From assembly GCF_009766105.1 (NCBI RefSeq), contig NZ_LMUH01000007.1:56790-120789 (forward strand): a stretch of DNA of 64,000 nt. The letters are read 5' to 3'. Position 1 is the first letter of the stretch; the number at the start of each line of letters is the position of its first letter. The notes under the pieces are model-generated. The model was not told where the DNA came from, ran no database searches, and saw only the letters and a list, made by a program, of their open reading frames with translations. Below are positions 20,306-37,952 of the stretch, piece after piece. The translations under genes were made by a program, and so were the position numbers. Source of the DNA: Granulicella sp. S156. Its GTDB lineage: Bacteria > Acidobacteriota > Terriglobia > Terriglobales > Acidobacteriaceae.

Positions 20306-20315
20306 TCGCATCTCC

Positions 20316-20563: not shown

Positions 20564-20644
20564 ACCGTACGGCCTAAGCGGAAAGCCCACACGCACCCGC
20601 ATCGCGTGCGGCTCGAGAGAGTCTCGCTTTGCTCTACTAGCCCA

Positions 20645-21988
20645 TCAGGGCAGCAAGCTGGGGTTAGCTCTCTGTGCCAGGTCTATTGCCTGCTGCGGAA
20701 ACCAGCTCCCTGCAATCGGATCGTCTAAGCCCCATAGTGGATCGAACACTGCCTGGCCCGCTGCGTCCGTCGGCCATTGCGCCTGGGAATAGTCTGTGTA
20801 GTCCCACGCTCTTGCTCCGCCCGCTGCGTCACAGGTCCCATCCGACTGACCTGGCGTCTTCACCCAGATATAGGCATCCAATAATGAAATGCCTGTACTT
20901 GCAGCTGGATGAGTCCCCAGCCCACGCGCCGGAGGGTTGCACCAGCCGCCATTGGTGAGGGTCTGGACGACTGCGGCCGGCTGGTTATACGGCGCGTTCG
21001 CATAGATGCTGGCATCGAGTGGTCCCTGGCCGTTGCGACTCGTGTCGACCACGAAATGCGTCACAGGTTCGGCTGTTCCCAGGTTCTGCTGAAACCACTC
21101 GTCGGTGTAGATCCAGGTCGTAATGTCGTCCGGGTTGACTGTTCCGAGAGGCGAATAATACTGGCTCGCACAGTACGAATAATTTCCCAGCCGCCATCCA
21201 CCATTGTCGGGATTGTTGGCGAACGCGATGCACTCGGAGACCCAGGTGTCATATTTAGATTCGTAATTGTTCAGGTTGAAGTTCGATACGTTCGTAAAGA
21301 ACCCCTGTGCCTGCGTGATGCCAGCCTGTGCGAGCCGCGCTGACATAATCGGTACAGCCTGCCAGTGACTATTGCCACCGTCGATATAGACCAGCGTTTG
21401 CGATCCAGCCTCCAACGTCGTCACCGCATAGTTGATCTGGGTATATCGATCCGCCGTGAGCTGCGCGATGTTCACCTGTGCCGGGTTGTAGCCGCAATCG
21501 CTGGGCAGATCCGCCAGAGCATCCGGCTCCAGCACGATCACTACCTTCTGACTACCGATCGCTGCCGCAATGGCATTAATCCACGTCTCGTAGTCTGCGG
21601 TATTCTCTGCTCCACCCGCCGAGTAGCTACCGCAGTCCCTGCCAGGAATGTTGTAGAGCACAAACACCGGTATGGCTCGTTCCAGATGCGCTTCCACAAG
21701 AGTTGTTGTCACGGTGGAGGTCACCTGGGAAGTCGTACCGCCAGTGAGCCACACCGCTTGAGGAACTGTCTCCATGGTCGTAAGCAGCAGAGCATCCTTG
21801 AACTTCCCCTGCTCTAACAGGCCCTCCACTTGTTGTGCGGCTCCAGTAGGCGGTAGAGGAGTAAAGAAACGTGTGTCGGCCGGCAGCGTCTTAGACTGTC
21901 CGTGAGCTCCGGCGAATGGAGTCAGAAAAAGCGCTGCTCCTATAACCAACCTGTGCAGAGTGTGCCGGTGAGTGGGTGTGCTGCGCAT
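20645..21988 (-). CDS. Glycoside hydrolase family 6 cellulase, secreted
   Basis: 447 residues from ATG 21988 (GGGAG upstream); the frame runs 14 codons further without a site. Signal peptide LHRLVIGAALFLTPFAGAHG. The GH6 catalytic domain carries the family motifs in order: VFVLYNIPGRDCGSYSAGG with D118 (matching Asp175 of Trichoderma Cel6A), VIVLEPDALADL with catalytic acid D156, VDTSRNGQGP, WCNPPARGLG, and DAYIWVKTPGQSDG. GH6 enzymes cut beta-1,4-glucan with inversion; whether this one is an endoglucanase or cellobiohydrolase cannot be told by eye. No carbohydrate-binding module is attached. It is divergent from the GH71 gene with a 252-base shared intergenic region. Confidence 0.9.
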   Translation of the reverse strand: MRSTPTHRHTLHRLVIGAALFLTPFAGAHGQSKTLPADTRFFTPLPPTGAAQQVEGLLEQGKFKDALLLTTMETVPQAVWLTGGTTSQVTSTVTTTLVEAHLERAIPVFVLYNIPGRDCGSYSAGGAENTADYETWINAIAAAIGSQKVVIVLEPDALADLPSDCGYNPAQVNIAQLTADRYTQINYAVTTLEAGSQTLVYIDGGNSHWQAVPIMSARLAQAGITQAQGFFTNVSNFNLNNYESKYDTWVSECIAFANNPDNGGWRLGNYSYCASQYYSPLGTVNPDDITTWIYTDEWFQQNLGTAEPVTHFVVDTSRNGQGPLDASIYANAPYNQPAAVVQTLTNGGWCNPPARGLGTHPAASTGISLLDAYIWVKTPGQSDGTCDAAGGARAWDYTDYSQAQWPTDAAGQAVFDPLWGLDDPIAGSWFPQQAIDLAQRANPSLLP

Positions 21989-22240
21989 ATTGAGATCTCC
22001 CGAAATTATGGTGCGTATTACACGTGCCATCTTCTAGATGTTTCGCTCAACGCTTGTCAAGAATGGAGTCTCGATGATCACGTTCAAAGGAAGAATTCTT
22101 CCTCTTCTGAAGAATGCGCGCAACCAACGATAGTATGGCGATTTTCAAACTCCTCTCACATTGGATATGCGTCTCCCTATGCTATGGTGGCTCGTGTCAT
22201 TTTCCAGAGAACTTTAGGATTTAGCCCGGAGGTTGCCGCT

Positions 22241-25021
22241 GTGCCCTCGCCTAAACACACGCTTCTCATCTCACGCTTCGACATGCTTCTGCCGCTTCTG
22301 GCACTTGCCCTCTTCTCTCTCCTAGTCCCGCAGAAAGTCATGGGACAAAAGAAGGTCTTCGCTCACTACCTGGTGACGAATCAGGACTACCAGGGCAATA
22401 CAGATCCGACAGGCCAACTAAAAGTCCAGGCCTACGAAAAAGAGATCCAGCAGGCGCAAGCCGCAGGCATTGACGGCTTTGCCCTCGACGTTGGAAGTTG
22501 GCTGAGCGAAGGTGTCTCTTCGGAGTATTACATCGCGTATGCCTCGCAGATGTTTGAAGCGGCTTACGAGCTCAATACTGGGTTCAAACTATTCTTCTCC
22601 GCCGACTTTTGCTGCGGCAATACAGTCAGCGATGCAGAAGACATGATGCGGCGTTTCGCCAATGACCCCAAATTCTCGACTGTCTACTATCAGTACAACG
22701 GTGCGTTTGTGCTGAGCACATTTTCAGGCGAAACGCAGATCGGGATCTCCGGCTTTCAGCAGATCCGCTCCGACCTGGCCAATGGAACCAATCCATCCAC
22801 GCAATCCGTTTCCTCAACATGGCCGACGCTTGAGGTTGGTGGAGCTCCGAGCAACGCCGACTTACAGATTTTTCTGGTTCCGGCATTCTTTAGCGGGTGG
22901 GGTGGAGATATCCCCACTCTTTCGGAGGTTCAATCCGGTTTCAATTCGTGGAGCTCTACGATCAACGGATCGCTCTACTGGGGCATAGCTGGCGTTCCAG
23001 GATCAGGGGGATCGATCGACCAGATTCCCAGTAGCGAAGACTATGCTTCCGTTGTTCAAAATAACGGAGGCAAGGTCTATATGGCGCCGATCACCCTGCA
23101 GTTCTGGGGCGCGGACGCAGCCAGCTCCTACAACTACTACGAATACAGCGGATATAGCGGCATGCGAAAGATGTGGATGGACGCCATCAACGTCTCTCAT
23201 CCCGACTGGGTCGAGATCATCACATGGAACGACTTCATCGAAGGCAGCTATGTAAGTCCCATCGACGACCCGAATAAATACTCGGACGCAAACTATCTCA
23301 CCGGGAGCGGACTGCCGACCGGAGTGCTGAATTACTTCCACACCCACGCCGGCGCTACTGCCCTGCTGCCGTACTTCATCCAGTGGTATAAAACAGGCGT
23401 TCAGCCCGCGATCAATAATGATTCGATCTACTGGGCGTATCGAACGCAATCGGTAAACGATAACGCCTCCAACAACACTCCCCAGATCTCGGCAAATACC
23501 GACAACGGCCCTATTGCCGATGACATCTACGTCACCGCAAACCTCGCGCAGCCGGGGACACTCGTCGTTACATCAGGCAGCCAAGTAACCTCCTTCACTC
23601 TTGCCGCGGGCAGCACCGATGTGCAGGCGCCCTTCGTGGATGGCAACACACCCACCTTCACCTTCAGGCCCAGCTCAACCGGCACCATTGAACTGAGCGG
23701 AACCGGCACGGATGCGATTGGCCTCGCCAACTACGCGATAGCCTCATGGGCAGGGTCTTCCAGCACGTCGACCCCCGCGAACGATTACTACTATTCGACG
23801 GGATCAGTTGCTGGGTCCAATATCTCGTCGTCAGTTGCGGCCACGCCTACCTTCAGCCCGTCTGCGGGATCGTATGCGAGCGCCCAGACCGTGACCCTCT
23901 CCGACGCCACCTCCGGCGCGCAGATCTACTACACCACCAATGGCACTACCCCGACGACTTCCTCGACACTCTATTCCGCGCCCATCACGGTGAGCGCGAC
24001 CGAGACTGTCGAAGCCATCGCCGTCGCTTCCGGATACACCAACAGCGCGGTCGCAACAGCAGCTTTCACCATCAGCGGAACGGCCGAAGGTCCGTATGGC
24101 GGCACGCCTGCAGCCCTCCCCGGCACAGTACAGGCCGAGAACTACGACACGGGTGGCCAGGGTGTTGCCTACAACGTGACTTCGATCAACGGCAGTGGAA
24201 ACAGCTACCGCTCCGACGGTGTCGATCTGGAAACCACCTCCGACACAGGTGGCGGCTACGATCTCGGATGGACAACTGCCGGACAATGGTTTCGCTACAC
24301 CGTCAATGTCGCTACAGCTGGAACCTACACGGTCAGCTTCCGTGTCTCCGCTCCCAGTGCTGTGACCGATGCCTTCCATCTGTCGAACGCCTCGGGAACA
24401 AACCTGAGTGGATCCGTCGACCTGCCCGCGACAGGCGGTTGGCAGACATGGGCAACGGTAACGGCCAGCGTCACACTGCCGGCGGGCCAGCAAGTCTTAA
24501 CGCTTAACCAGGACAACGCCGGTTGGAACTTCAACTACGCGACGTTTGCGGCGTCCGGATCGCCCTATGGTGGAACTCCAGCAGCCATCCCCGGCACGGT
24601 GCAGGCCGAGAACTATGACACAGGTGGTCAGGGGTACGCCTATAACGTGACTTCGATCAACGGCACTGGCAACAGCTATCGCTCCGACGGCGTCGATCTG
24701 GAGACAACCTCGGACACAGGTGGCGGCTACGATCTCGGATGGACAACCTCCGGACAGTGGTTTCACTACACCGTCAACGTCGCCACAGCCGGAACCTACA
24801 CGGTCAGCTTCCGCGTCGCTGCTCCCAGCGCTGTTACAGATGCTTTGCATCTGTCGAACGCGTCGGGAACCAACCTGAGCGGGTCCGTCAATCTTCCGGC
24901 GACAGGCGGCTGGCAAACGTGGACGACGGTGACAGCCAACATTACGCTGCCGGCGGGCCGGCAAGTCTTAACGCTTAACCAGGACAACGCCGGTTGGAAT
25001 ATCAATTCCATGACGTATTGA
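22241..25021 (+). CDS. GH71-type alpha-1,3-glucanase with chitobiase-like and two CBM6-like domains
   Basis: 926 residues. The frame is open from 21902, but GTG at 22241 has GGAGG eight bases upstream and opens onto the signal peptide (MLLPLLALALFSLLVPQKVMGQ). Catalytic part: KKVFAHYLVTNQDYQGN, then AQAAGIDGFALDVGSW, FKLFFSADF, KVYMAPITLQFWG, PDWVEIITWNDFIEGSYV; these are GH71 (mutanase) marks. After a beta-rich linker comes a chitobiase C-terminal-type domain (FSPSAGSYASAQTVTLSDAT...YYTTNGTTPTTSS) and two tandem CBM6/CBM35-like modules (GTVQAENYDTGGQG...NQDNAGWN). GH71 acts on alpha-1,3-glucan, a fungal wall and dental-plaque polymer. The repeated CBMs are almost identical at DNA level. Confidence 0.85.
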   Translation: MPSPKHTLLISRFDMLLPLLALALFSLLVPQKVMGQKKVFAHYLVTNQDYQGNTDPTGQLKVQAYEKEIQQAQAAGIDGFALDVGSWLSEGVSSEYYIAYASQMFEAAYELNTGFKLFFSADFCCGNTVSDAEDMMRRFANDPKFSTVYYQYNGAFVLSTFSGETQIGISGFQQIRSDLANGTNPSTQSVSSTWPTLEVGGAPSNADLQIFLVPAFFSGWGGDIPTLSEVQSGFNSWSSTINGSLYWGIAGVPGSGGSIDQIPSSEDYASVVQNNGGKVYMAPITLQFWGADAASSYNYYEYSGYSGMRKMWMDAINVSHPDWVEIITWNDFIEGSYVSPIDDPNKYSDANYLTGSGLPTGVLNYFHTHAGATALLPYFIQWYKTGVQPAINNDSIYWAYRTQSVNDNASNNTPQISANTDNGPIADDIYVTANLAQPGTLVVTSGSQVTSFTLAAGSTDVQAPFVDGNTPTFTFRPSSTGTIELSGTGTDAIGLANYAIASWAGSSSTSTPANDYYYSTGSVAGSNISSSVAATPTFSPSAGSYASAQTVTLSDATSGAQIYYTTNGTTPTTSSTLYSAPITVSATETVEAIAVASGYTNSAVATAAFTISGTAEGPYGGTPAALPGTVQAENYDTGGQGVAYNVTSINGSGNSYRSDGVDLETTSDTGGGYDLGWTTAGQWFRYTVNVATAGTYTVSFRVSAPSAVTDAFHLSNASGTNLSGSVDLPATGGWQTWATVTASVTLPAGQQVLTLNQDNAGWNFNYATFAASGSPYGGTPAAIPGTVQAENYDTGGQGYAYNVTSINGTGNSYRSDGVDLETTSDTGGGYDLGWTTSGQWFHYTVNVATAGTYTVSFRVAAPSAVTDALHLSNASGTNLSGSVNLPATGGWQTWTTVTANITLPAGRQVLTLNQDNAGWNINSMTY
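24092..25018 (+). repeat. Tandem duplication of the CBM-coding segment
   Basis: Two copies with a period of 471 bases (24092 onward and 24563 onward) inside the GH71 gene. Long identical stretches include the segments encoding SYRSDGVDLETTSDTGGGYD and the end coding for VLTLNQDNAGWN. Differences are mostly synonymous. Confidence 0.85.
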
Positions 25022-25045
25022 TACTCCACATCTAGTTATCAACAA

Positions 25046-25073
25046 AAACGGCCTCCCTTGCGAGAGGCCGTTT
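25046..25073 (+). terminator. Terminator after the GH71 gene
   Basis: AAACGGCCTC, 8-base loop, GAGGCCGTTT, 24 bases after the stop codon. Its symmetric A/T ends would allow bidirectional termination. Confidence 0.75.
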
Positions 25074-25091
25074 CATCGTGTTGACCGCAAT

Positions 25092-25283
25092 CTAGAGCAT
25101 TTTTCGTGCAGGTGTAGAGCAGCAGGAGAAAGCGTAGTGTCAGTTGAAACATTGGAGACGTGGCATACATGGGCAGGAGCGGTCGGGCGGTCGCCCGATG
25201 CCCACCTTAGGCGCAAAAAACGCGCCGAAGATGGGGCACCCGGATTTGTGGCTCGCTCTACATCTATAGAGGAAATGCTCTAG
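25092..25283. mobile_element. MITE-like element with TAGAGCATTT ends, containing repeat copy 3
   Basis: Ends are CTAGAGCATTTTT (25092) and GGAAATGCTCTAG (to 25283). The right end, TCTACATCTATAG before the terminal motif, matches the right ends of the 115-bp elements at 61065 and 62269 (TCTACACCTATAG). The left end carries the same GGTGTAGA motif inverted. A GAGCGGTCG...CACCCGG repeat (25177-25243) sits inside. The right terminus overlaps the stop codon of the minus-strand gene 25280-26638. Confidence 0.6.
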
Positions 25284-26638
25284 TGAGAGGTCGTACGACG
25301 GTGGGCGGGAGCCTTCGCCGGTGGTTTCGCCGGGACAACTGAGCTATCGCTCATTGTGACCATGACTGGCGACGAGGTGTAGGACGCATAGGTGCCCTGC
25401 AGCTTTATTTTGTCACCGGCCTTAGGCACGACCTTCAACGGTTCTTTCATGTTGAAGGTAAAATCTGCCGTCTTGCTTTGCACCGAATCGTCGGAAAACG
25501 CAACCTGAACAGCATCCGCAGTAGCCGAGATGACCAAGGCATCACCGAAGGATACCGATTTACCCTTGACGCTATCGAAGACCTCATCCGCGTAGGTCTT
25601 TTGGGTCTTGGGGTCTATCTGGCCCGTAGCAGGATCCACCGTCCCGGTCTTAGGATCGGGAACATTGCCATATTGATACACAAACTCCTTGTCGCCGGGG
25701 GCTAATTTGGCGAGGTCGGGCGTGCTGGCAATCGTCTGCTTTACGTAGTCAATAGGCTTGGGCGCGGCCGTGATGGTGGTGCCCAGATCGACTGGAGGTG
25801 TCAGGCTTGTCTTCACCAATGCCTGTAGCTTCTCATAGCCATCGGTGCTGCCATGGTACTTCTTGTAGCAGTAGGTCGCCGTCGGCTGAATCGCAGACAC
25901 ATACTGGCCGGCAAACGCAGCAGCCCGAGTCGCGTACCAGGCGCAGTTCAGGTAATCGGGCGGCGTCGATTGCTGATAGGCGTTTGCCAGATAGAACACA
26001 TCCTGCAGCACGGCGCCTGGAGCCTGTGTCGCGTCCGGGGTTACGCCACCGAGTTCAGTTTTGAACGCCGTAATCGCGTCCGTATAGTCCTTCTTGGATA
26101 TATCATCGTCCGCAATTGCGCCCTGAAAGGTGGCTGTAGCCGACTTGAAGGTGGCATCATCCATAGCAGCTGGCTTGCCAACACCCAGGCCCGTCTGGGC
26201 ATAGCCCGCGGCCTTGTCGAGAGCCGCAGTCTTGGCGGCGGGATCAGTCAGTGCATCCGCCGCGCTCCGGCGCAGAAAGGCTTCGAGGTACAGTGCTTGA
26301 AGCTGTTTCGGATCGGCTTGCAGAAGACGGTCTGCGGCATCCAGCGTCTTAGCAGGATCGTTGGCTTTGTAGTAGGCGAACATCAGTTTCGCGAGCGCAT
26401 CCTTCTTGACCGCGGAGTTTGGATAGGCCTTCAGATAGGCCTCCCACGCGGCTGCCTGTGCAGCGGGTGTGGCTGCGGTATCGGCATCGTTATAGGCCTT
26501 GTACTCCTCCGGCGACATCTGAATCTGCCCGGCAGCCTGGCCAGCGGCAGGGGCTGAGGCATCCTGCGCAAAGCAGGGTTGCACAACGGTAGCAACGCCG
26601 GCCATTGCCAGCAGTGAAGCAAGTACGACGTTCTTCAT
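25280..26638 (-). CDS. Exported TPR-like protein of unknown function
   Basis: 452 residues from ATG 26638, preceded by GGAGC; the frame continues upstream without a site. Signal peptide VVLASLLAMAGVATVVQPCFAQ. The middle is Ala-rich and helical with TPR-like periodicity (AWEAYLKAYPNSAVKKDALAKLMFAYYKANDPAKTLDAADRLLQADPKQLQALYLEAFL). The C-terminal quarter is a beta-type domain (GDALVISATADAVQVAFSDD...GDKIKLQGTYASYTSSPVMVTMSDSSVV) followed by a basic, Pro/Ala tail (KPPAKAPAHRRTTSH). Such proteins recur in Acidobacteria; no catalytic motif is seen. The stop codon falls within the end of a MITE-like element, so the last residues may have been altered by the insertion. Confidence 0.7.
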   Translation of the reverse strand: MKNVVLASLLAMAGVATVVQPCFAQDASAPAAGQAAGQIQMSPEEYKAYNDADTAATPAAQAAAWEAYLKAYPNSAVKKDALAKLMFAYYKANDPAKTLDAADRLLQADPKQLQALYLEAFLRRSAADALTDPAAKTAALDKAAGYAQTGLGVGKPAAMDDATFKSATATFQGAIADDDISKKDYTDAITAFKTELGGVTPDATQAPGAVLQDVFYLANAYQQSTPPDYLNCAWYATRAAAFAGQYVSAIQPTATYCYKKYHGSTDGYEKLQALVKTSLTPPVDLGTTITAAPKPIDYVKQTIASTPDLAKLAPGDKEFVYQYGNVPDPKTGTVDPATGQIDPKTQKTYADEVFDSVKGKSVSFGDALVISATADAVQVAFSDDSVQSKTADFTFNMKEPLKVVPKAGDKIKLQGTYASYTSSPVMVTMSDSSVVPAKPPAKAPAHRRTTSH

Positions 26639-26771
26639 AGAAAAGCTCCTGGGCTGAATTAAGATGACAGTATACCTATACAAGACAACACCTTTGTTCG
26701 GCCACGATAAAACAGCTCGATACTCCAGGAAACAGCGAAAAACGCAGGCTCGAGCATCCCCACAAGTCTCT

Positions 26772-27533
26772 ATGACGGAAGACGAACACATCCTCACAGG
26801 CGGAAACGTCGCCGCACGCGTCGTAAGAATCGGAGAGACGGTACGCAAGCCGGTCACGATTGCCACATCCAGCGTCAAAAGCCTTCTCGATTTCCTGCAG
26901 GCTCGAGGCTACCCTGCATGCCCACAACACTTTGGGATGGATGAACAAGGCCGGCAATCTTTGGAGTTTGTTCCGGGAGTCATGGCCAATGTCGGAACCC
27001 CGTTGAGCCTCGCCGATTTAGAGGGGGTCGGCAGACTCATCCGTCAATTGCACGAGCTTACGGCTTGCTTCCCGATTCCGGCCGGCGCACGCTGGGACGT
27101 TCCGATACGTCCCGACCATGACGATCTCATCTGTCACAACGATCTCGCACCATGGAATCTGGTGCGGAACGGGGATCGATGGGTCTTCATCGACTGGGAT
27201 AACTCAGGTCCCGGTTCTCGCCTTTGGGACCTATCCTATGCGGCGATCACCTTCCCTCCCATAGAGCCGCAGGGGGACATCACGGAGATAGCTCCACGGG
27301 TCCGCGCATTAGTCAGAGGCTACGGATTGTCCCCTTCACAAGGCGATGCTTTACCCGCGTTGATGCGTAGGCGCGCTCAAGCCATGGGAGACCTTCTCGT
27401 GAAGGGTGCAGCGAAGGGTCTTCAACCCTGGACGCAGATGTATGCAGCAGATCACGCCAGGTACTGGTTCGGGGCGGCGAAGTTTGTAGAGGAACATAGC
27501 CAGGCATTACAAGACGTCTGCAAGAATCCTTGA
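26772..27533 (+). CDS. APH-family small-molecule kinase
   Basis: 253 residues from ATG 26772; the frame extends to 26664 without a better start and the ribosome binding site is weak. The phosphotransferase core is clear: ICHNDLAPWNLV (HxDxxxxN catalytic loop) and VFIDWDNSGPGSRLWDLSYA (metal-binding Asp), followed by the helical C-terminal lobe. The N-terminal lobe is short (GGNVAARVVRIGETVRKP) but present. Family members phosphorylate aminoglycosides, choline, homoserine or other small alcohols. Nothing here fixes the substrate, so resistance should not be assumed. A decayed partial copy of the same gene lies about 1 kb downstream (28505-28625). Confidence 0.75.
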   Translation: MTEDEHILTGGNVAARVVRIGETVRKPVTIATSSVKSLLDFLQARGYPACPQHFGMDEQGRQSLEFVPGVMANVGTPLSLADLEGVGRLIRQLHELTACFPIPAGARWDVPIRPDHDDLICHNDLAPWNLVRNGDRWVFIDWDNSGPGSRLWDLSYAAITFPPIEPQGDITEIAPRVRALVRGYGLSPSQGDALPALMRRRAQAMGDLLVKGAAKGLQPWTQMYAADHARYWFGAAKFVEEHSQALQDVCKNP

Positions 27534-27604
27534 ATGAACCTGTAGGGGCTAATGGACTGAGTGTACCGGGACATGCGTTACGCTGTGGAACCTGACACAT
27601 CCGC

Positions 27605-27922
27605 TTAGATCGGATCAGCAGCACCGGCAACAATTCTTTGCAGTGCAGCTACGTGATTATGGAACATCTTGCGGCCGGTGCGGGTGACTGAGACCCACGT
27701 TCGCTGACGACCATCGGCGGTGGCCTTGGTGAGTTTGATGAGCCCGGCGTCGGCGAGTGCCGATAGGTGCTTCGACATGACCGAATCGCTGGTGCTCGTG
27801 AGTTCTTTGAGGCGAGCGAACTCGGCCTGTTCCACTTGTACGAGAACGGCCATGACCTGAAGGCGTGCGGCTGCCTGGAGCAATGGCTCGAACCCGACGA
27901 TGATGGTTGCGCTAGCAGGCAT
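27605..27922 (-). CDS. Winged-helix transcriptional regulator (HTH_27/ArsR-MarR-like)
   Basis: 105 residues. Whole protein is one winged helix: ARLQVMAVLVQVEQAEFARLKELTSTSDSVMSKHLSALADAGLIKLTKATADGRQRTWVSVTRTGRKMFHNHVAAL, with the recognition helix around SDSVMSKHLSAL. It overlaps the end of the upstream membrane-protein gene by 11 bases, so the two are one operon. Small repressors paired with a membrane protein in this order usually repress their own operon. The tandem TTTCCATTGTGGAAA palindromes at 28371-28417 are the obvious candidate site. Confidence 0.8.
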   Translation of the reverse strand: MPASATIIVGFEPLLQAAARLQVMAVLVQVEQAEFARLKELTSTSDSVMSKHLSALADAGLIKLTKATADGRQRTWVSVTRTGRKMFHNHVAALQRIVAGAADPI

Positions 27923-28358: not shown

Positions 28359-28370
28359 CTGATTGGCCTC

Positions 28371-28417
28371 ACTTTCCATTGTGGAAAGTATAGCGTTCAT
28401 TTTCCATTGTGGAAAGT
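28371..28417 (-). promoter_or_regulatory. Tandem perfect palindromes and promoter of the HTH/membrane operon
   Basis: TTTCCATTGTGGAAA occurs twice (28373-28387 and 28401-28415), each a perfect dyad, 28 bases apart. On the minus strand a TATACT -10 (28387-28392) lies between them, and TTTCCA from the outer palindrome can serve as -35 with 17-base spacing. Binding by the operon's own repressor would block the promoter. Confidence 0.65.
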
Positions 28418-28504
28418 GGCTTTAACAAGTTTCTACCTCGGGATTGCTACTTCGACGCTCTGCCTGTGGACCCCGCATCTAGCCATCGTCATTTTCCAGC
28501 GAGA

Positions 28505-28625: not shown

Positions 28626-29140
28626 ATAATTTGTTCTGTCTCTCATACCGCCGCAGATCCGTCATCCTGTACTAGATCTAAGTCATGACCTGCCTCACCC
28701 ATCATTCAAGTCCATGAACAATGTAGTCAGACAGATAGCTTGCTCAACCAGGTAATACGGACCGGGTAATAAGTGTGATGCCGCCGAATTGCTCCACACT
28801 GACAGATTCAAAGGAAGATGAACGTTGCCTTGCGTCGCCTGGAATTTTTTACGGAACTTCTATTCATTCCCACTTGACTAGAGAGGCACGCTAGTAGTAT
28901 TTTGAATCCCGCCGTCATGGAATCGTTACCAACGCCGGATAGAACATAATTTTCATAGGCAATCCGATAACGGGTTGCATCTGTCCGATGCGTGTGTACA
29001 AAGCTGTCGCAGTCAGTAGTCAGGAATACTTCTTCATCTGCATGAACAGTAGAGCCGTGTGGTTCACTGCTTTCCGCACGGAATGAAACGCAGATTCATT
29101 GCACGTCGCCTGTATAGCGAGCCCGCAAGGAGAATTCTCC

Positions 29141-30682: not shown

Positions 30683-30872
30683 TTTGTAATCCTCAGCCTA
30701 TTTCTTAGGACTGTTTCCCACCAGATCGTTTTTAGTCACGACTGACTTCTATCGCAGCCCATGAAGGATCGCAGCACCCTGTACGACTGAATGGTTGCCT
30801 TCTGCTGAGTCACCTGCAGGCATATCTTCCAGATCCATATTTATTCAAATCCAGACTACTTAATGAGGGTTT

Positions 30873-32945
30873 ATGAAGAACTATGTGATGCCGCTCGTCG
30901 TCTTGTTACTTTCCTCCCCGGTGTTAGCCCAGCAACAAGCTCCCATAAAAAATAGCGTTCGCAGCGTGGTCGTAAACCGGCAGGTCAGAATGCTGAGCCA
31001 GCTGGATGAGGCACAGACCCTGAAGTTATCGATCGCCCTTCCGCTGCGCGATCAAGCAGGGCTCACTTCCCTGCTGCAGCAACTCTACAATCCTGCCAGC
31101 CCGCAGTATCATCACTGGCTTTCTGTGCAGCAGTTTACCGATAGATTCGGCCCTACGCAGGAAGACTACGACACTGTCGCGCGGTATGCGCAAGCCAACG
31201 GCCTTACGATTCGAGCCAGAACTGCCAATCGCTTTCTTCTGGACGTGAATGGTTCTGTGGCGCAGGTCAACAAGGCTCTTCACGTAACGATGCAGACATA
31301 CCAGCATCCCACCGAGGACCGAACCTTCTACTCGCCAGACCGGACTCCTATGCTCGACCTTCCCGTGAAGATCTGGTACATCGCCGGGCTGGATAACTTC
31401 TCCATTCCGAAGCCTCGTCTTCGTTTTGCAAAGGCTGGCGAACCCAAGACGTTCACAACGGGTTCAGGTCCGGGCGGAGCGTTTCTCGGCAGCGATATGC
31501 GTGCGGCATACTATGGCGGCACGGCGCTCACGGGAGCAGGCCAGACGATTGGCTTGTTCGGCCTGGACTACAACATCAGCGATGTTGAGAACTACTTCAG
31601 CAACGTCGGCCAGCCGTTTAATTCCGGTGTCGTGCAGAACTACTCGACCGATGGCACAACCAACTCCTGCGGCTCAGGCTGCGATGACGGCGAGCCTGTC
31701 ATCGACATCGTGGAAGCACTTTCCATGGCGCCTGGAGCCAGCGCGATCATCGAGTACTTCGGTGCGAACTTTGAAGACACCTTCAACGCCATGGCCACGG
31801 CGAACGTCGCAAAGCAGCTTAGCGCATCTGTCGGCTACCTGCCTGCAAACCCTACTGCGGATGAGCCTATCTTTCAGGAGTTTGCTGCACAGGGACAGAA
31901 CCTGTTTGTATCCTCCGACGACAGTGGTGCTTATCTGAATGGCGTCGATGCCTATTACCCTGCAGACGATCCGTATGTGGTCTCTACCGGTGGTACGGAC
32001 CTGACAACCAACGGATCAGGCGGAGCCTGGTCGTCAGAGAGTGCCTGGGTCGGCAGCGGCGGCGGCATCAGCACAAACGGCCTGGCCATTCCTTCGTATC
32101 AGCAGATATCCGGCGTTATTAACTCGTCGAATGGCGGATCAACCACCTTGCGCAACGCTCCTGATGTGGCCATGGAGGCGAATACGGATAACTGGTATTG
32201 CGTCAATGGCAACCCCTGCCAGGGAGGTGTTGGGGGCACGAGTCTCTCCGCACCGCGCTGGGCTGGCTTTCTGGCGTTGATCAATGAACAGGCGGCCAAC
32301 AATGGGCAGTCCTCCGTCGGCTTTCTCAACACCATCGTGTATTCACTCGGCTCTAGCTCGAACTACAGCGGAGACATGCACGACATCACGACCGGCAACA
32401 ACAACGACTCGGGCAACGGAGGCTACAACGCCGTTGCCGGATACGACCTGGTGACCGGCTGGGGCAGTCCGAATGGGCAAGCGTTTATTAACGCGCTGGC
32501 GCCCCTGACAACTGGCAATCTTGACGGCGCGCACATCATGGCTCCGGCAAGCTCTCCTGGCCTGGTGCTTGACGATTATGCCTCCGGCACCGGCAGTGGC
32601 AACCAGATTGACATCTGGACTGCCAACGGTACGGGAGCGCAATCCTGGGTCTTTGGCAGCGCGAACGTACAGCCGGCGGGAGACTACAACATTGCCGTGT
32701 CCTACGGCGCCTACTGCGCCACGGCATCGGGCACAACCAGCGGTTCGGTTGTGAACCTGCAACCGTGCAGTGGAGCGTCGTCGCAGGCGTGGAACATCAC
32801 CAGCGCTGGAAGCGAATACATCTTGCATCCGTCAGGCAATGCTGGACTCTGCCTTGATGTGGAGAACTCCGGCACGACCAACGGAACGCTTGTGCAGGTC
32901 TACACCTGCAACAACACGAACGCCCAAAACTGGGCGCTTCAGTAA
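30873..32945 (+). CDS. S53 (sedolisin/kumamolisin) peptidase with C-terminal ricin-type lectin
   Basis: 690 residues. Signal peptide MKNYVMPLVVLLLSSPVLA. Pro-kumamolisin activation domain about 30-175 (LSIALPLRDQAGLTSLLQQLYNPASPQYHHWLSVQQFTDRFGP). The catalytic domain holds the sedolisin triad: E274 and D278 in EPVIDIVEALSMAPGA, the oxyanion Asp in SSDDSGA (about 349-350), and S457 in GGTSLSAPRWAG. The calcium site is visible as DITTGNNNDSG...GYDLVTGWGSPNG. A ricin-B/CBM13-like domain occupies about 550-690. S53 enzymes are serine-carboxyl endopeptidases active at low pH, so this is probably a secreted acid protease. The attached lectin suggests targeting to a glycan-rich surface. Confidence 0.92.
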   Translation: MKNYVMPLVVLLLSSPVLAQQQAPIKNSVRSVVVNRQVRMLSQLDEAQTLKLSIALPLRDQAGLTSLLQQLYNPASPQYHHWLSVQQFTDRFGPTQEDYDTVARYAQANGLTIRARTANRFLLDVNGSVAQVNKALHVTMQTYQHPTEDRTFYSPDRTPMLDLPVKIWYIAGLDNFSIPKPRLRFAKAGEPKTFTTGSGPGGAFLGSDMRAAYYGGTALTGAGQTIGLFGLDYNISDVENYFSNVGQPFNSGVVQNYSTDGTTNSCGSGCDDGEPVIDIVEALSMAPGASAIIEYFGANFEDTFNAMATANVAKQLSASVGYLPANPTADEPIFQEFAAQGQNLFVSSDDSGAYLNGVDAYYPADDPYVVSTGGTDLTTNGSGGAWSSESAWVGSGGGISTNGLAIPSYQQISGVINSSNGGSTTLRNAPDVAMEANTDNWYCVNGNPCQGGVGGTSLSAPRWAGFLALINEQAANNGQSSVGFLNTIVYSLGSSSNYSGDMHDITTGNNNDSGNGGYNAVAGYDLVTGWGSPNGQAFINALAPLTTGNLDGAHIMAPASSPGLVLDDYASGTGSGNQIDIWTANGTGAQSWVFGSANVQPAGDYNIAVSYGAYCATASGTTSGSVVNLQPCSGASSQAWNITSAGSEYILHPSGNAGLCLDVENSGTTNGTLVQVYTCNNTNAQNWALQ

Positions 32946-33089
32946 GAAAACGATGGAACGAGGCGGTTCACACCGCCTTGATTCAAGTCGTTGAACTGTG
33001 TCTGCCTTCCTGGACATCCCAACGCAGGCACAAAGATCCTCACTCACTCGTCACGCAACCCGAAACTACCCATGGAGAGAGCAATGACA

Positions 33090-34487
33090 ATGCCAGAATG
33101 CAAGCGCAGACCAAACCAATTTTTCTCGAATGTTTGTCTTTTCCTATCCTGTCTTTTCGTAATGACCCTTTCAGCCGCAGCGCAAAATCTATCTGCAGGG
33201 CGCCCCACGAACGTACCGGCTGAATATGTGGTAACGCCGTTCGGCTATATGCATCCTTCGTGTCTGGTACACCTGCGCGAAGGAGAAAGCGTCGGGAAAA
33301 ATACAGTTCATCATGCCGACGGCACAGTGGAGAATGTCGCAGCCTGCCAGTATCCGCGTTATAAGGCGAACGGAGACGTTATGGCGCAGCCCGCAACGTC
33401 AAAATCGACCGAGACCGAGACCGCAACACCGCCACCGCCCACAATTAGCTGGGACTGGGTGGAGGACGTCACTGACTTTTATTCAAGTAACCTTGGCAAA
33501 CAATCCAGCACCTGGGTTGTGCCGGCAGACCCCACCAGCCACGACGGCCAGACCGATTACTTCTTCCCAGGCATCGGCAATATCATGCAGCCCGTGCTGG
33601 GGTGGGGCGCTGACTATGCGACCGGATGGGGCATAGCCAGCTGGGTATGCTGCAGTCCTGCGGCGGAGAGCGCGGCGATTCCAGTCAACGCCGGCGACCT
33701 GATCTCAGGAACCACAACCCAAACCTGCAGCAATGGGAGCGCTTCCTGTGGCACCTGGATCGTCTCGACAACCGACGTGACAACCGGCCAGACCACGACC
33801 CTGGGCGCCGAGCCAACCCAGGGAGATCAGAATGAAGCGATTGGCGGTGTACTCGAGGTGTATAGCATCGCCCAATGTAGCGATTATCCCGCGAACGGTG
33901 AAATCGTCTACGACTCTACGTTTTATGACTATAACGGCAACTTCGTACCCAATCTGACCTGGACCGGCAGCGCAAGCACTACCGATTCACCCCAGTGCAA
34001 CTATTCTGCGTCGGCACCGACGCAGTCGCAAATTGTACTTACCTTCGGCACCGTTGCGAACCTGAACGGCACACACACCTTGACCCCACAGAACTCCACT
34101 GGATCGCGCCTGGATGATTGGCAGTCCGGAACCGGCAACGGGAATCAGATTGATATCTACGGGGCGAATAACACGGGGGCACAGAGTTGGGTGTTCGGCA
34201 ACTCGGGTGTTTCGCCTTCCGGGTTCTACAACATCGCGGTCTCCTATGGAGCGTATTGCTTGACGGCTTCCGGCTCTAGCAGCGGCTCCCTGGTCCAGCT
34301 CGATGCCTGCAACGGGGCCTCCTCACAGGCGTGGCAAGCGGTGCCTGCAGGTAGCGGATACGTACTTCATCCTGCCAACAACACCTCTCTCTGCCTGGAC
34401 GTGCAGGGCGATGGAACTGCCAATGGAACGCTGGTGGACGCCTATACCTGCAACGGCGGCAACAACGAGAACTGGGTGCTCAACTAA
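33090..34487 (+). CDS. Secreted protein with eqolisin-like core and ricin-type lectin
   Basis: 465 residues; ATG 33090 lies nine bases after GGAGAG. Signal peptide LFLSCLFVMTLSAAAQ. An N-terminal segment (GYMHPSCLVHLREGESV...HHADGTVENVAACQYPRY) leads to a Thr/Pro linker and a beta-rich central domain (about 120-315), then a ricin-B/CBM13-like domain. I do not firmly recognise the central domain. Its run of motifs, STWVVPADPT, FFPGIGNIMQPVLGWG (Q167), WGIASWVCC, VNAGDLISG and GGVLEVYSI (E256), parallels the order TVP, WVGIDG-ILQTG, W-E-W-P, GD-I and EWIVE of G1 glutamic peptidases, whose dyad is Gln and Glu. A glutamic acid-peptidase role is therefore possible but unproven. It sits directly behind the S53 acid protease. 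Confidence 0.65.
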   Translation: MPECKRRPNQFFSNVCLFLSCLFVMTLSAAAQNLSAGRPTNVPAEYVVTPFGYMHPSCLVHLREGESVGKNTVHHADGTVENVAACQYPRYKANGDVMAQPATSKSTETETATPPPPTISWDWVEDVTDFYSSNLGKQSSTWVVPADPTSHDGQTDYFFPGIGNIMQPVLGWGADYATGWGIASWVCCSPAAESAAIPVNAGDLISGTTTQTCSNGSASCGTWIVSTTDVTTGQTTTLGAEPTQGDQNEAIGGVLEVYSIAQCSDYPANGEIVYDSTFYDYNGNFVPNLTWTGSASTTDSPQCNYSASAPTQSQIVLTFGTVANLNGTHTLTPQNSTGSRLDDWQSGTGNGNQIDIYGANNTGAQSWVFGNSGVSPSGFYNIAVSYGAYCLTASGSSSGSLVQLDACNGASSQAWQAVPAGSGYVLHPANNTSLCLDVQGDGTANGTLVDAYTCNGGNNENWVLN

Positions 34488-34515
34488 ACGGCTTATCCAT
34501 TCGATTTTGCCAACC

Positions 34516-34545
34516 GAAATCCCCCGGTTTTTACCGGGGGATTTC
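34516..34545 (+). terminator. Hairpin between lectin-protein gene and second GH76 gene
   Basis: GAAATCCCCCGG, loop TTTTTA, CCGGGGGATTTC: a perfect 12-bp stem ending ten bases before the AAGGAGA of the next gene. It could end the upstream transcript or stabilise and partially attenuate a polycistronic message. Confidence 0.65.
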
Positions 34546-34564
34546 AATCTACAAGGAGAGCTTT

Positions 34565-35881
34565 ATGCTTCGGCCCAATTTCCAAACGCTCAATCAGTTC
34601 TTTCATCGGACTACCTTAGGAGCAGCGCTTCTGCTCGCCATCTCACTTCCGGGCCTGACAGCCTTCGCGCAAACGGCCTGTTACACACCTTGGAGTGCCA
34701 CTACGGTGTATACAGGCGGACAGACGGCCAGCGAAAATAATCAGAATTACACCGCAGATTACTGGACGCAGAATCAGGACCCCTCCTCCAACAGCGGCGC
34801 AGTTGGAACTGGCGAGCCCTGGATTCCAGACGGAAGTTGTGGTGGTGCTGCTGCTTCTCCCTATGCGCAAGAGGCAGCCGAAGGAGTTACTACACTCCAG
34901 CAGTGGTATGTGCAGAGTAGCGGCCTCTATCAGTCCCCTACTGGATGGTGGAATGCCGCGAACGCGATCACTCTCTTAGTGAATTACTCCAGGGTCACCG
35001 GTACGACGCAGTATCTCTCCGCAGTTGCAAACACGTATGCGAATGCGAATGCGGCGAACGGCAGCCAGAACTTTATCACCAGCGCAAACGATGACGAAGG
35101 CTGGTGGGCTTTGGCCTGGGTCGATGCCTACGATCTGACACAAAACCAGAACTATCTGAATACCGCTGAAACCATATTCTCCGACTTAACCACGCAGTGG
35201 GATACGACCACGTGCGGTGGAGGCGTTTGGTGGAGCAAGAATCTCACGACGTCGGCCTACAAGAACGCGGTTACGAATGAGATCTTCCTAAAGCTTGCCG
35301 CATCGCTTGCCAACCGCGTCTCCGATCCCACAGCGAAGGCGCAATATCTAAGCTGGGCCAATCAGGAATGGCAATGGTTCCAGAGCTCCGGCATGATCAA
35401 TTCGCAGAATCTGATCAACGATGGACTGAATGCCACCAATCCAAACGCCTGCACGAACAATGGCCAGACAACCTGGACCTACAACCAGGGAGTGATACTG
35501 GGCGGCCTGGTTGAGCTTAATAAAGCCAATCAGAATAGTTCTCTGATAACAACGGCGCAGACGATTGCCAGTGCGACCATGACGAACCTTGTGACTTCCA
35601 ACGGAATCCTGCAGGAACCTTCGATCTCCGGACCAGATCAGCCGCAGTTCAAAGGTATCTTCATGCGCAATCTCATGGAGCTCGATGAGGCATCTCCTCA
35701 GTCGCAGTATCAAACATTCGTCGATAACAACGTGAACAGCATTTGGCAGAGTGATCAGGGATCGAATTACGAGTTTGGCGTCTACTGGCAAGGTCCCTTC
35801 GATTCAGGGGATGCGACACGTCAGACCTCGGCGCTAGACGCCTTCGTTGCTGCCATAGAGATGGAGGGCAATTCGCAGTAG
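34565..35881 (+). CDS. GH76 alpha-1,6-mannanase with N-terminal chitin-binding (CBM5/12) module
   Basis: 438 residues with a strong AAGGAGA site. Signal peptide LLLAISLPGLTAFAQ. Residues about 38-92 form a CBM5/12-type module (CYTPWSATTVYTGGQTASENNQNYTADYWTQNQDPSSNSG...PWIPDGSCG) with the aromatic pattern of chitin-binding domains. GH76 domain follows: GWWNAANAITLLVNYS, NDDEGWWALAWVDAYD with the catalytic Asp pair D176-D177, GGGVWWSKNLTTSAYKNAVTNEIFLKLAASL, WTYNQGVILGGLVEL, and QFKGIFMRNLMEL. It has no ricin domain, unlike the preceding three genes. A mannanase that binds chitin fits fungal wall degradation (inference). Confidence 0.9.
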   Translation: MLRPNFQTLNQFFHRTTLGAALLLAISLPGLTAFAQTACYTPWSATTVYTGGQTASENNQNYTADYWTQNQDPSSNSGAVGTGEPWIPDGSCGGAAASPYAQEAAEGVTTLQQWYVQSSGLYQSPTGWWNAANAITLLVNYSRVTGTTQYLSAVANTYANANAANGSQNFITSANDDEGWWALAWVDAYDLTQNQNYLNTAETIFSDLTTQWDTTTCGGGVWWSKNLTTSAYKNAVTNEIFLKLAASLANRVSDPTAKAQYLSWANQEWQWFQSSGMINSQNLINDGLNATNPNACTNNGQTTWTYNQGVILGGLVELNKANQNSSLITTAQTIASATMTNLVTSNGILQEPSISGPDQPQFKGIFMRNLMELDEASPQSQYQTFVDNNVNSIWQSDQGSNYEFGVYWQGPFDSGDATRQTSALDAFVAAIEMEGNSQ

Positions 35882-36005
35882 ATTGCATCTCACGGACGAC
35901 ATACATAACAACTGTCAGAACCATGTGGTGGCCCAGACCTCATGGCGCAACGATGAAGTTCCTGTCGATTTAAGGGACTGGGTGTGAGCCATTGGATAAT
36001 TGGAC

Positions 36006-37952
36006 ATGGTGCGTTTCACTCCTCTTCCGCTCGTTCGATTCGCTGCCGTTTGTGCTCTCGCGGCACTCTTGCCACTGTGCAGTCACGCAGACGCTTTGGG
36101 GCAGGTCAATTCCGGCCGGATCACTCCTCGGCCTGCACAGGCCTTTCGCGGATGGGGCATGTCCCTGATGTGGGAGGCAAACGACCTCTACGGCGGCGGC
36201 CGCCAGGTGGCGAAGATCAAGGATCCGAAGATTCAGAGCCAGTATATGGACCTGCTCTTCGGAGACCCGGCAACGCGTCTCACACTTGGACTCACGATCG
36301 CCCGCTACAACATCGGGGGTGGCGACGATCCAACGCACACGCACATGCGGCCCGATGCTCAGATGGAAGGCTATCAATCCGGTCCAGACAAGCCTTTTGA
36401 CTGGAGTAGAGATGCGTCGCAGCGGCGCATGCTGGAGGAAGCCAAGAAGCGCGGGGCTAACATTTTTGAGGCTGCTTCTTATTCCCCGCCCTACTGGATG
36501 ACGCTCAGCGGCTGCACCTCCGGGAGCAAAGACACACATCAGGACAACCTGCGTCCCGATATGCGAGAAAGTTTCGTCAACTATCTGGCAACCGTCGTCA
36601 AGCACTTTCGAGATGCGGAAGGAATCCGCTTTGAAAGCCTGGAGCCATTCAACGAACCGGATGCCGACTGGTGGAAAGCCGGAGAGAGTCAGGAGGGGTA
36701 CACCGTACCGGTGGCGACCCAGAGTGCAATCCTTCCGATGCTGGCGAACGTCCTTAAGGGCGACGGTTTAAGCACCATGGTTGCCGGCGTCGATGCGAAC
36801 AACATCCCGGCGGCGGTGAGCATTGGCAATCAGCTAAGCGCCGATGCGCTCTCCGCGACCGGGCGACTGAATACGCACGACTATCATTCATCCATCGGCG
36901 ATGTGGCAAAGCTCAAGGAGTACAGAGCTCTCGCCGAGAAGCTGCACAAACCGATCTGGATGAGCGAAGTCGGCTGCTGCTTTGGAGATCAAGGGGACAA
37001 GAGCGAGATGTGGGGAGCTCTGTTCATGGCGGATTCCATCCGCACGGATCTGCGCGATATGGGTGCGGAATCGTGGGTGCTCTGGCAGCCTGACTGGGGC
37101 GTGATCGCCTTCGATCCCAAAGGCGGGGAGCCGCATCTGCAGAAGCAATACTATGCACTCGCCCAGTACACCCGCTTCATTCGGCCAGGCTTTCAGATCA
37201 TCTCAGCCGGAGGAGCGTTCCATACCCTCGCTGCTTACTCGCGCTCGGCGAAGCGCCTCGTTCTTGTAACAACCAACTGGGAGACACCGGGGGAGAACGA
37301 CCTTGATCTCACGGCATTCGCTGGGCTCCAGTCCTCAGTAGCGGCCTACCGTACGACCGGAGACAATTCAGTCAGTCTGCGAGAGGAAAAGATCGCGATC
37401 TCCGCAACGGGACACATCCTTGACTCGCTTCCGGTTCGCTCCATCACTACTTATGTGATCGACGGTGTTACGCCCACCGCAAAGGCTCTGACGGGCACCC
37501 TCCAGGGCACTCATAAGGTTGTCTCACAAGCAGCCAGGCAATGCCTGAATATCACCACCAACTCCACGCGCGCGGGTGACGCCATCATTCCCTATTCCTG
37601 TGGCGCCTTCAATAACGAAGAGTTTAACTTTGTCGAGAAGGCTGGCGGGTTCTACTCGATTCAAACCGTCAACGGCGCAGAGAACCTGTGTCTGAACGTG
37701 TCCAACGGTGCGACATCGCCCGGAGACGGCAGGACGCGCGGAGGTCCGGGAAACCTGATTCAGTGGAGTTGCGGCAATGGCTCGTTGCCCGCAAACGATC
37801 TCTTTGAGATGATGCCCTCGGGCGAGGGCAGTTATCGAATTCGCGTAAAGAGCAGCGGCCTCTGCCTGGAAGACCCAGGAGCAGGAGGCACGATCCGCCA
37901 GAATCGCTGTGATGCTGCATCCGCGAACCAAATATTCAGCCTGATCGACTAA
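36006..37952 (+). CDS. GH30-family glycosidase with C-terminal ricin-type lectin
   Basis: 648 residues from ATG 36006; a TTG two codons earlier is the alternative and no strong ribosome binding site is seen. Signal peptide ends near SHADA. The catalytic domain resembles GH30 endo-beta-1,6-glucanase/galactanase enzymes: QAFRGWGMSLMWEAND, TIARYNIGGGDDPTH, EAASYSPPYWMT, SLEPFNEPDADWW with acid/base E217, HDYHSS, and PIWMSEVGCC with nucleophile E321. The beta-side domain continues to about 495, followed by a ricin-B-like domain (GTHKVVSQAARQCLNITTNSTRAGD...CLEDPGAGGTIRQNRCD) that is more divergent than the other three lectin domains. Substrate is either beta-1,6-glucan (fungal wall) or beta-1,6-galactan (plant); sequence alone does not decide. 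Confidence 0.85.
   Translation: MVRFTPLPLVRFAAVCALAALLPLCSHADALGQVNSGRITPRPAQAFRGWGMSLMWEANDLYGGGRQVAKIKDPKIQSQYMDLLFGDPATRLTLGLTIARYNIGGGDDPTHTHMRPDAQMEGYQSGPDKPFDWSRDASQRRMLEEAKKRGANIFEAASYSPPYWMTLSGCTSGSKDTHQDNLRPDMRESFVNYLATVVKHFRDAEGIRFESLEPFNEPDADWWKAGESQEGYTVPVATQSAILPMLANVLKGDGLSTMVAGVDANNIPAAVSIGNQLSADALSATGRLNTHDYHSSIGDVAKLKEYRALAEKLHKPIWMSEVGCCFGDQGDKSEMWGALFMADSIRTDLRDMGAESWVLWQPDWGVIAFDPKGGEPHLQKQYYALAQYTRFIRPGFQIISAGGAFHTLAAYSRSAKRLVLVTTNWETPGENDLDLTAFAGLQSSVAAYRTTGDNSVSLREEKIAISATGHILDSLPVRSITTYVIDGVTPTAKALTGTLQGTHKVVSQAARQCLNITTNSTRAGDAIIPYSCGAFNNEEFNFVEKAGGFYSIQTVNGAENLCLNVSNGATSPGDGRTRGGPGNLIQWSCGNGSLPANDLFEMMPSGEGSYRIRVKSSGLCLEDPGAGGTIRQNRCDAASANQIFSLID

What the first reader, a model, noticed from the sequence alone, without database searches (positions are those of the whole stretch)
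20645..37952. Secreted-enzyme block that matches the polymers of a fungal cell wall
Within 17 kb are GH6, GH71 (alpha-1,3-glucanase type), two GH76 (alpha-1,6-mannanase), a GH30 of the beta-1,6-glucanase/galactanase type, a chitin-binding CBM5/12 module, an S53 acid protease and an eqolisin-like protein. All have signal peptides, and 29.1-38.0 kb is fully co-oriented. Alpha-1,3-glucan, mannan, beta-1,6-glucan and chitin are the main fungal wall components. There is no SusCD, PUL regulator or importer inside the block, so this is unlike a classical Bacteroidetes PUL. The fungal target is inference.
Basis: partly seen in the sequence, partly recalled or inferred. Interest (0 to 1): 0.8.

Follow-up and report, generated by a model that had tools for sequence, protein, structure and literature searches.

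The report
Lectin-tagged enzymes against fungal walls
A soil bacterium of the Granulicella group carries side by side two mannan-cutting enzymes and two acid proteases, three of these four tagged with the same sugar-gripping module that its relatives attach to enzymes for another fungal wall polymer, which makes this a plausible but unproven kit for taking fungal walls apart.

Summary
In detail: GH6, GH71, two GH76, S53, an eqolisin-like peptidase and a GH30 lie at the stated places; 29.1-38.0 kb is co-oriented. It is two sub-blocks, a divergent GH6/GH71 pair and a five-gene run, with about 4 kb of non-CAZyme genes between. The five other carriers of this subtype found, all Acidobacteriaceae, are GH16 (3) or thaumatin-like (2) proteins. 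With GH71 and GH76b contexts in relatives, this favours a fungal wall or mannoprotein target, resembling the lectin-tagged yeast-lytic enzymes of actinomycetes. Against the fungal reading too: the lectin's nearest solved relatives are xylanase modules, and GH6 suggests cellulose. Binding, activity and co-expression are untested. Verdict: a new variant of a known kind.

The parts
20645..22030 (-). secreted GH6 glycoside hydrolase, divergent from GH71
   Evidence: Pfam PF01341 209 bits; hydrophobic N-terminus
22283..25021 (+). secreted GH71 (alpha-1,3-glucanase type) with chitobiase-C, CBM35 and CBM6 tail; ORF opens at 21902, signal-like start 22283
   Evidence: Pfam; PDB best catalytic match Agn1 8yfh E 3.7e-21; start choice; the 93% identical GH71 of G022 is an ORF of 527 aa against 912 here, without the tail
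25280..26878 (-). exported TPR-like protein, not a CAZyme; separates the two sub-blocks; conserved in congeners at 65-75% DNA identity
26664..27533 (+). APH-family phosphotransferase, not part of the enzyme set
   Evidence: Pfam PF01636
29099..30682 (+). GH76a: alpha-1,6-mannanase type with C-terminal ricin-B module (lectin 30251-30679)
   Evidence: Pfam; PDB 5m77/4d4a; lectin 71% identical to that of the eqolisin
30873..32945 (+). S53 sedolisin/kumamolisin-type acid peptidase with the same ricin-B module (lectin 32508-32942)
   Evidence: Pfam; PDB kumamolisin 1t1e E 8e-41; GGTS motif
32991..34487 (+). eqolisin-like (glutamic peptidase fold) protein with the same ricin-B module (lectin 34056-34484); likely start at an ATG between 33072 and 33090
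   Evidence: AF2 model and Foldseek: 2ifr E 1.7e-7; Q and E of the presumed dyad invariant in 5 of 5 rows; lectin; translation
34565..35881 (+). GH76b with N-terminal CBM5/12-like chitin-binding type module, no ricin-B
   Evidence: Pfam; PDB CtGH76 9r4k E 7e-58 and chitin-binding 6z40 E 2e-11
36000..37952 (+). GH30 (PF14587), endo-beta-1,6-galactanase-like, with a divergent ricin-B module (37461-37949)
   Evidence: Pfam; PDB 24td; active-site map by eye
38061..39191 (+). exported alpha/beta-hydrolase-like protein, co-oriented, role unknown
   Evidence: weak PAF-AH/PETase-like matches below cut-off; hydrophobic N-terminus

Best explanation
The co-oriented run is a secreted, acid-adapted set for opening fungal walls, most directly the mannoprotein layer. 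Two GH76 enzymes cut alpha-1,6-linked mannan while an S53 and a glutamic peptidase cut the protein part; one lectin subtype, shared by GH76a and both peptidases, holds these activities on the same bulk wall surface. GH76b uses a chitin-binding type module instead. The divergent GH71 takes alpha-1,3-glucan. Products are probably finished elsewhere: the genome has 14 GH92 alpha-mannosidase places, and one locus with GH76, GH92, TonB receptor and S53. Shown: domains, shared lectin, partner enzymes of the lectin, locus contexts. Inferred: substrates, binding, joint expression, acid optimum, and that the GH30 and GH6 (galactan and glucan chains of mixed litter, or side polymers) act with the set.
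For: Same lectin subtype on GH76a, S53 and eqolisin (62-71% identity). The 5 other carriers found at 50% identity or more are GH16 with lectin (G022; G002, whose protein is 97.6% identical; palsa_277, by BLAST) or thaumatin with lectin (this genome C12; palsa_246); the GH16 of G022 is nearest to beta-1,3-glucanases in PDB. In palsa_277 the lectin-GH16 gene stands about 0.9 kb from a GH30 (PF02055) whose CBM35/CBM6 tail is 42% identical to the GH71 tail of the window. GH31 and TonB receptor near GH71 in G018 and G035. GH92: 14 places here, the most of 61 genomes; 7 of 19 GH76b-type places lie within 16 kb of a GH92 (19 of 26 listed places used; 6 of 19 within 10 kb). S53 relatives lie near GH92 and a TonB receptor on C26 of this genome and in G002, 2 of the 3 neighbourhoods labelled for GH92. 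Precedent: passages of PMC1458353 report CBM13 modules on actinomycete yeast-lytic beta-1,3-glucanases and on Rarobacter protease I (mannose-binding), needed for efficient lysis of living yeast; the abstract of PMC10449523 reports a chitinase aimed by a beta-glucan CBM in the Chitinophaga fungal-wall locus.
Against: The lectin's nearest solved relatives are CBM13 modules of xylanases (1knl E 1.3e-18). GH30 points to beta-1,6-galactan, a plant-type polymer; its relative in G018 lies some 2.7 kb from a GH36 alpha-galactosidase. GH6 here and GH9 at 6887-8749 suggest cellulose. No chitinase, beta-1,3-glucanase or GH92 in the block. In G022 the two scanned neighbours of GH71 are a multicopper oxidase and a phosphoesterase, and in G018 a sulfatase stands beside GH71. 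The block was not found in relatives. One operon is not shown: promoters are at shuffle level (9 found, 9.2 expected), terminator-like sites are above it (22 against 15.5, sd 3.5), one of them at the end of GH76a on the coding strand, and a GC-rich inverted repeat is seen in the gap between eqolisin and GH76b (sequence printed). Another ricin-B subtype of this genome is on a GH12. GH71 was among families enriched on Granulicella exopolysaccharide in a soil labelling study (PMC7265232, passages).
Confidence: 0.55

Rival explanations
1. A mixed litter block: a set of secreted enzymes for whatever reaches acid soil, plant and fungal together, with no single target. GH6 (and GH9 nearby) take cellulose, the GH30 takes arabinogalactan side chains, S53 and eqolisin take any protein, GH76 and GH71 take fungal material, and the lectin holds xylan or galactose-bearing chains.
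For: GH30 nearest to endo-beta-1,6-galactanase with Gln229, Trp222, Tyr294, Trp350 and Trp359 equivalents kept; GH6 in the pair, GH9 in the window; non-CAZyme genes split the block; lectin nearest to xylanase CBM13 among solved structures.
Against: The 5 other carriers of the lectin subtype found are GH16 or thaumatin-type; no xylanase, pectinase or arabinanase in the block.
Confidence: 0.28
2. A chance or loose grouping: enzymes gained one by one in a genome rich in such genes, without joint function.
For: No examined relative keeps the block; GH76a, eqolisin and GH30 have no DNA match among the scored candidates in 6 congeners; GH30, GH71, GH76 and S53 homologues of G018 are at separate places; terminator-like sites inside the run.
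Against: Three unrelated catalytic domains with one lectin subtype side by side; 4 of 15 ricin-B domains within 8 kb.
Confidence: 0.1
3. The target is bacterial exopolysaccharide or capsule, own or foreign.
For: GH71 enriched with a Granulicella EPS that contains mannose, glucose and galactose (PMC7265232 passages); a GH76 of Mycobacterium cuts lipomannan (PMC12295086 passages).
Against: GH76b is nearest to CtGH76 of the fungal/bacterial mixed type, GH76a to characterised alpha-1,6-mannanases; acid peptidases and the chitin-binding type module have no evident role in EPS.
Confidence: 0.05

Closest known systems
Yeast-lytic enzyme systems of actinomycetes (Cellulosimicrobium cellulans beta-1,3-glucanases, Rarobacter faecitabidus protease I)
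   Same: C-terminal CBM13/ricin-B modules on wall-opening glycanases and on a protease (PMC1458353 passages)
   Different: Here an acidobacterium; two acid peptidases of other classes (S53, G1-like) and a GH76 share the module in one run; no beta-1,3-glucanase in the run; mannose binding untested
[quoted passage not shown]
   Same: A module aims an enzyme at the bulk wall rather than at its own substrate (PMC10449523 abstract)
   Different: FCWUL is a SusD-bearing PUL with chitinases and a beta-1,3-glucanase; here no SusCD, no chitinase, but mannanases and peptidases
GH30_5 endo-beta-1,6-galactanase Sa16Gal30A (24td)
   Same: Best solved relative; both catalytic Glu, Gln229, Trp222, Tyr294, Trp350, Pro355 and Trp359 equivalents kept
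   Different: Loop 8 is 5 residues shorter, Asp354 has no aligned partner, Trp341 of the second sugar site is Asp, and a ricin-B module is attached
CtGH76, fungal/bacterial mixed GH76 subfamily
   Same: Best solved relative of GH76b, E 7e-58, DD motif
   Different: Bacterial, with a chitin-binding type module; that paper failed to show activity of CtGH76 on alpha-1,6-manno-oligosaccharides (passages)
Eqolisins (MEROPS G1)
   Same: Best fold match and a conserved Q and E
   Different: No Pfam match; Gly55 position is Val, Glu69 not seen; lectin attached

Membership tests
Bacteroidota-type polysaccharide utilization locus | SusC/SusD pair in the locus | tested here: not met
   No such family in the block or in the neighbouring ORFs scanned; a TonB-receptor-like barrel is 7 kb from GH6
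Yeast-lytic lectin-tagged enzyme set | CBM13/ricin-B module on a peptidase | tested here: met
   S53 and eqolisin-like protein
Yeast-lytic lectin-tagged enzyme set | same module on a beta-1,3-glucanase | tested here: inconclusive
   Met in relatives (GH16) and on a thaumatin-like protein of this genome, not in the block
Yeast-lytic lectin-tagged enzyme set | mannose or wall binding by the module, lysis of yeast | not testable with these tools
   needs binding and lysis assays; nearest solved lectin relatives are xylanase modules
GH30_5 endo-beta-1,6-galactanase | closest to 24td among GH30 structures | tested here: met
   24td 210 bits, next 97; 136 against 54 with the single sequence
GH30_5 endo-beta-1,6-galactanase | subsite -1 and -2 residues | tested here: inconclusive
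   Subsite -1 kept; in subsite -2 Trp350, Pro355 and Trp359 kept but Asp354 unmatched (mapped by eye)
GH30_5 endo-beta-1,6-galactanase | secondary galactan site (Trp341) | tested here: not met
   Asp at that position
GH30_3 endo-beta-1,6-glucanase | closest to 5ngk/5ngl | tested here: not met
   22 bits against 210 for 24td; absent at E 0.01 from the single-sequence search
GH71 | Pfam GH71 and nearest solved relatives of alpha-1,3-glucanase type | tested here: met
   activity and catalytic residues not tested
GH76 | Pfam GH76 and catalytic Asp-Asp motif | tested here: met
   for both genes
S53 sedolisin | pro-kumamolisin domain and catalytic-domain match | tested here: met
Eqolisin (G1) | fold and Q/E dyad | tested here: met
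   2ifr E 1.7e-7, TM 0.57 on a model of pLDDT 67; Q52/E141 invariant in 5 of 5; their place in the active site was not inspected
Eqolisin (G1) | strictly conserved Gly55 and Glu69 | tested here: not met
   Val at the Gly55 place in QPV and no Glu seen near the W; placed by eye

The most novel reading that the evidence does not exclude
A single lectin subtype, so far seen only in Acidobacteriaceae, works as a common wall anchor passed between unrelated enzymes (alpha-mannanase, sedolisin, glutamic peptidase, GH16, thaumatin-like), giving an acid-soil counterpart, evolved separately, of the actinomycete yeast-lytic system, in which mannan and protein of the same mannoprotein are cut by enzymes standing on the same anchor.
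Probability: 0.35. Interest if true: 0.65.

Novelty: new variant of a known kind. Interest (0 to 1): 0.5.

Why it matters
Who takes dead fungal walls apart in acid soils is an open question for soil carbon. A named gene set with one shared binding module, in an acidobacterial group that has been cultured, gives direct tests: one lectin to assay for binding, five enzymes to assay on mannoprotein and galactan, and one run of genes to follow on fungal necromass. It would also offer acid-active lectin-tagged peptidases; in the papers opened here, lectin-tagged wall-lytic peptidases appear only in actinomycetes.

Tried and rejected
beta-1,6-glucanase reading of GH30: rejected. A profile of ten GH30 proteins was dominated by rows of another, xylanase-like group (it ranked 7n6h first at 443 bits and 24td twelfth at 176) and was set aside as off-target; the three-row profile was used, though in that alignment the nucleophile column seems shifted, so the residue map comes from the printed alignment. 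Conservation of the block was looked for in 61 genomes with five protein queries and the lectin; not found (read by eye from listed places; the S53 list was cut). GH6 was not searched in relatives. First AF2 model of the eqolisin (pLDDT 41.5) was useless; trimming to the core and adding a row gave a usable one. Pfam for the 1021-aa protein that shares the GH71 CBM found no catalytic domain. Literature, listings only unless said: one search found no paper, one (not opened), one search listed 25 of 54, two, eight; no listed title describes such a block in Acidobacteria; subscription papers are missing. The main texts of PMC11497827 and PMC5900883 hold no mention of GH76, GH71 or GH92. From PMC11039641 passages only were seen, for CBM13 structure.

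Counts and drops: the GH76b-GH92 count used 19 of the 26 places listed; dropped were five places matching the N-terminal module only or mainly and two of GH76a type. Its 16 kb limit was set after the distances were seen (6 of 19 at 10 kb), G022 and G002 are close kin and not independent, and the expectation printed there is for this genome only. The ricin-B null is uniform placement. The lectin scan of the GTDB collection used two short patterns, so divergent carriers can be missed; of 33 stretches, 9 loci were confirmed, 3 of them above 50% identity (two being G022 and G033 again); the window's own genome may be left out there. One search scored 40 candidates per genome out of 45 to 102.
Full report
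What is there. The window lies in a 6.44 Mb genome of 26 contigs. A relative with the same genus label (G022) has a 60,644-base contig carrying the same GH16-lectin gene as Granulicella mallensis X5P3 contig NZ_JACHIO010000030.1, also of 60,644 bases, so the host belongs to the Granulicella group; its species is not known. The cited genes are real by profile search. They form two sub-blocks: GH6 and GH71, divergent, at 20645-25021, and a co-oriented run GH76a, S53, eqolisin-like, GH76b, GH30 at 29099-37952, followed on the same strand by an alpha/beta-hydrolase-like gene to 39191. Between them are an exported TPR-like protein and an APH-family kinase. A 54-nt hairpin repeat flanks the GH6/GH71 pair.

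The shared lectin. Four of the five run genes end in a ricin-B domain. Those of GH76a, S53 and eqolisin are one subtype, 62-71% identical to each other, fused to three unrelated catalytic domains; the GH30's is divergent. Among 61 genomes, the subtype at 50% identity or more occurs in 4 (this one, G022, G002, G033), and a pattern scan of the GTDB collection added one more, palsa_277; all are Acidobacteriaceae by genus label or record title. Outside the run five carriers were found: thaumatin-like proteins in this genome (C12) and in palsa_246 (G033), and GH16 proteins in G022, G002 and palsa_277. The GH16 of G022 is nearest to beta-1,3-glucanases in the PDB. In palsa_277 the lectin-GH16 gene is about 0.9 kb from a GH30 (PF02055) carrying a CBM35/CBM6 tail like that of the window's GH71. 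So both accessory modules of the window recur side by side at a place that looks made for beta-glucan. Against this stands that the lectin's nearest solved relatives are xylanase CBM13 modules.

Each enzyme. GH71: nearest solved relatives are S. pombe Agn1 and a GH71 entry; relatives in G018 and G035 have a TonB receptor and a GH31 alpha-glucosidase close by, a context that fits alpha-glucan, while in G022 the two neighbours scanned are a multicopper oxidase and a phosphoesterase, and a sulfatase adjoins GH71 in G018; four other relatives with GH71 were not looked at. GH76a: nearest to alpha-1,6-mannanases. GH76b: nearest by far to fungal CtGH76 (200 bits, next non-Chaetomium match 90), of the fungal/bacterial mixed subfamily that its authors assign to degradation of alpha-1,6-mannan and GPI-core glycans, although they failed to show activity on manno-oligosaccharides. 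Both have the Asp-Asp motif. S53: kumamolisin type. Eqolisin-like: no Pfam match, but the predicted core has scytalidoglutamic peptidase as best fold and an invariant Gln and Glu in 5 of 5 rows; two hallmarks named in PMC6154417 (passages) are not seen. Bacterial glutamic peptidases are known (PMC3009609, passages). GH30: nearest to Streptomyces avermitilis Sa16Gal30A (24td), an endo-beta-1,6-galactanase of GH30_5 (PMC13431644 passages); the galactose-reading Gln229 and most subsite residues are kept, Asp354 and Trp341 are not; the GH30_3 beta-1,6-glucanase is a remote match.

Setting in the genome. This genome has 14 GH92 places, the most of 61 genomes, the next having 9. On C26 a GH76, a GH92, a TonB-receptor-like protein and an S53 stand together, and G002 has a TonB receptor, an S53 and a GH92 on one strand within about 13 kb. 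A third S53 neighbourhood labelled in the same way (L155) has no GH92. Of 19 GH76b-type places in the relatives and this genome, 7 lie within 16 kb of a GH92, 6 within 10 kb. Pairing of mannan enzymes with an S53 peptidase is therefore not confined to the window.

Conservation. The block itself was not found elsewhere: GH30 has only two strong matches among 60 relatives (G018 37%, G050 39%), GH71 occurs in 7 of 60, the eqolisin core in 2 of 60, both partial, and in 5 of the 395 other genomes sampled from the phylum (4 of 395 with a profile), and homologues within one genome lie at separate places. In six congeners the TPR gene shows the strong DNA similarity, with short weak matches in GH76b and S53; GH76a, eqolisin and GH30 show none among the candidates scored. 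GH71 of G022 is 93% identical over the catalytic part but lacks the CBM tail. The run is best seen as put together recently in this lineage, which is inference. Whether it is one operon is open: promoter-like sites are at shuffle level and terminator-like sites above it.

Reading. The likeliest account is a lectin-anchored secreted set against fungal wall mannoprotein and glucan, working like the actinomycete yeast-lytic enzymes, whose CBM13 modules on glucanase and protease are needed for efficient lysis of living yeast (PMC1458353 passages). It is not filed as a member of that system, because binding and lysis cannot be tested here. By analogy the lectin may hold mannan; by its partners it may hold beta-glucan; by its solved kin it may hold xylan or galactose; the sequence does not decide. 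GH30 and GH6 remain the odd members and are the best argument for a mixed litter diet. Interest is moderate: families and principle are known; the combination (one lectin subtype on a mannanase and two acid peptidases of different classes, in an acidobacterium) did not appear among the titles listed.

Noticed in passing
window 20511-20564, 25191-25244, 17963-17980: A 54-nt hairpin (REP-like) repeat, 98% identical between the two full copies, brackets the GH6/GH71 pair; its 18-nt core is also at 17963, in L107 and L108, and similar stretches occur at several places in congeners.
   Followed up: partly
window 27553-27603: A stretch of about 45 nt is 94-96% identical to dispersed places in three congeners (G002, G015, G022), with one further 90% match: perhaps another intergenic repeat of the genus.
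   Followed up: no
window 6887-8749: A GH9 cellulase-type gene close to a large TonB-receptor-like barrel protein (9899-13462).
   Followed up: no
window 18021-20320: M56/DUF3738 fusion next to a small ORF that reads like a BlaI-type regulator (recalled likeness, not scanned), beside GH6; DUF3738 recurs at 2929-3780.
   Followed up: no
L107:9670-12735: A 1021-aa protein next to a TonB-receptor-like protein carries a CBM 73% identical to part of the GH71 tail and a ricin-B module, but its N-terminal 600 residues match no Pfam catalytic family.
   Followed up: partly
L115:5878-8040; L109:11445-12893: GH18 proteins of the same genome with the CBM5/12-like module or a ricin-B module, so chitinase-type genes exist elsewhere in the genome.
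   Followed up: no
L117:6874-8865: A protein with a Vps62-family domain, ricin-B and CBM35 modules.
   Followed up: no
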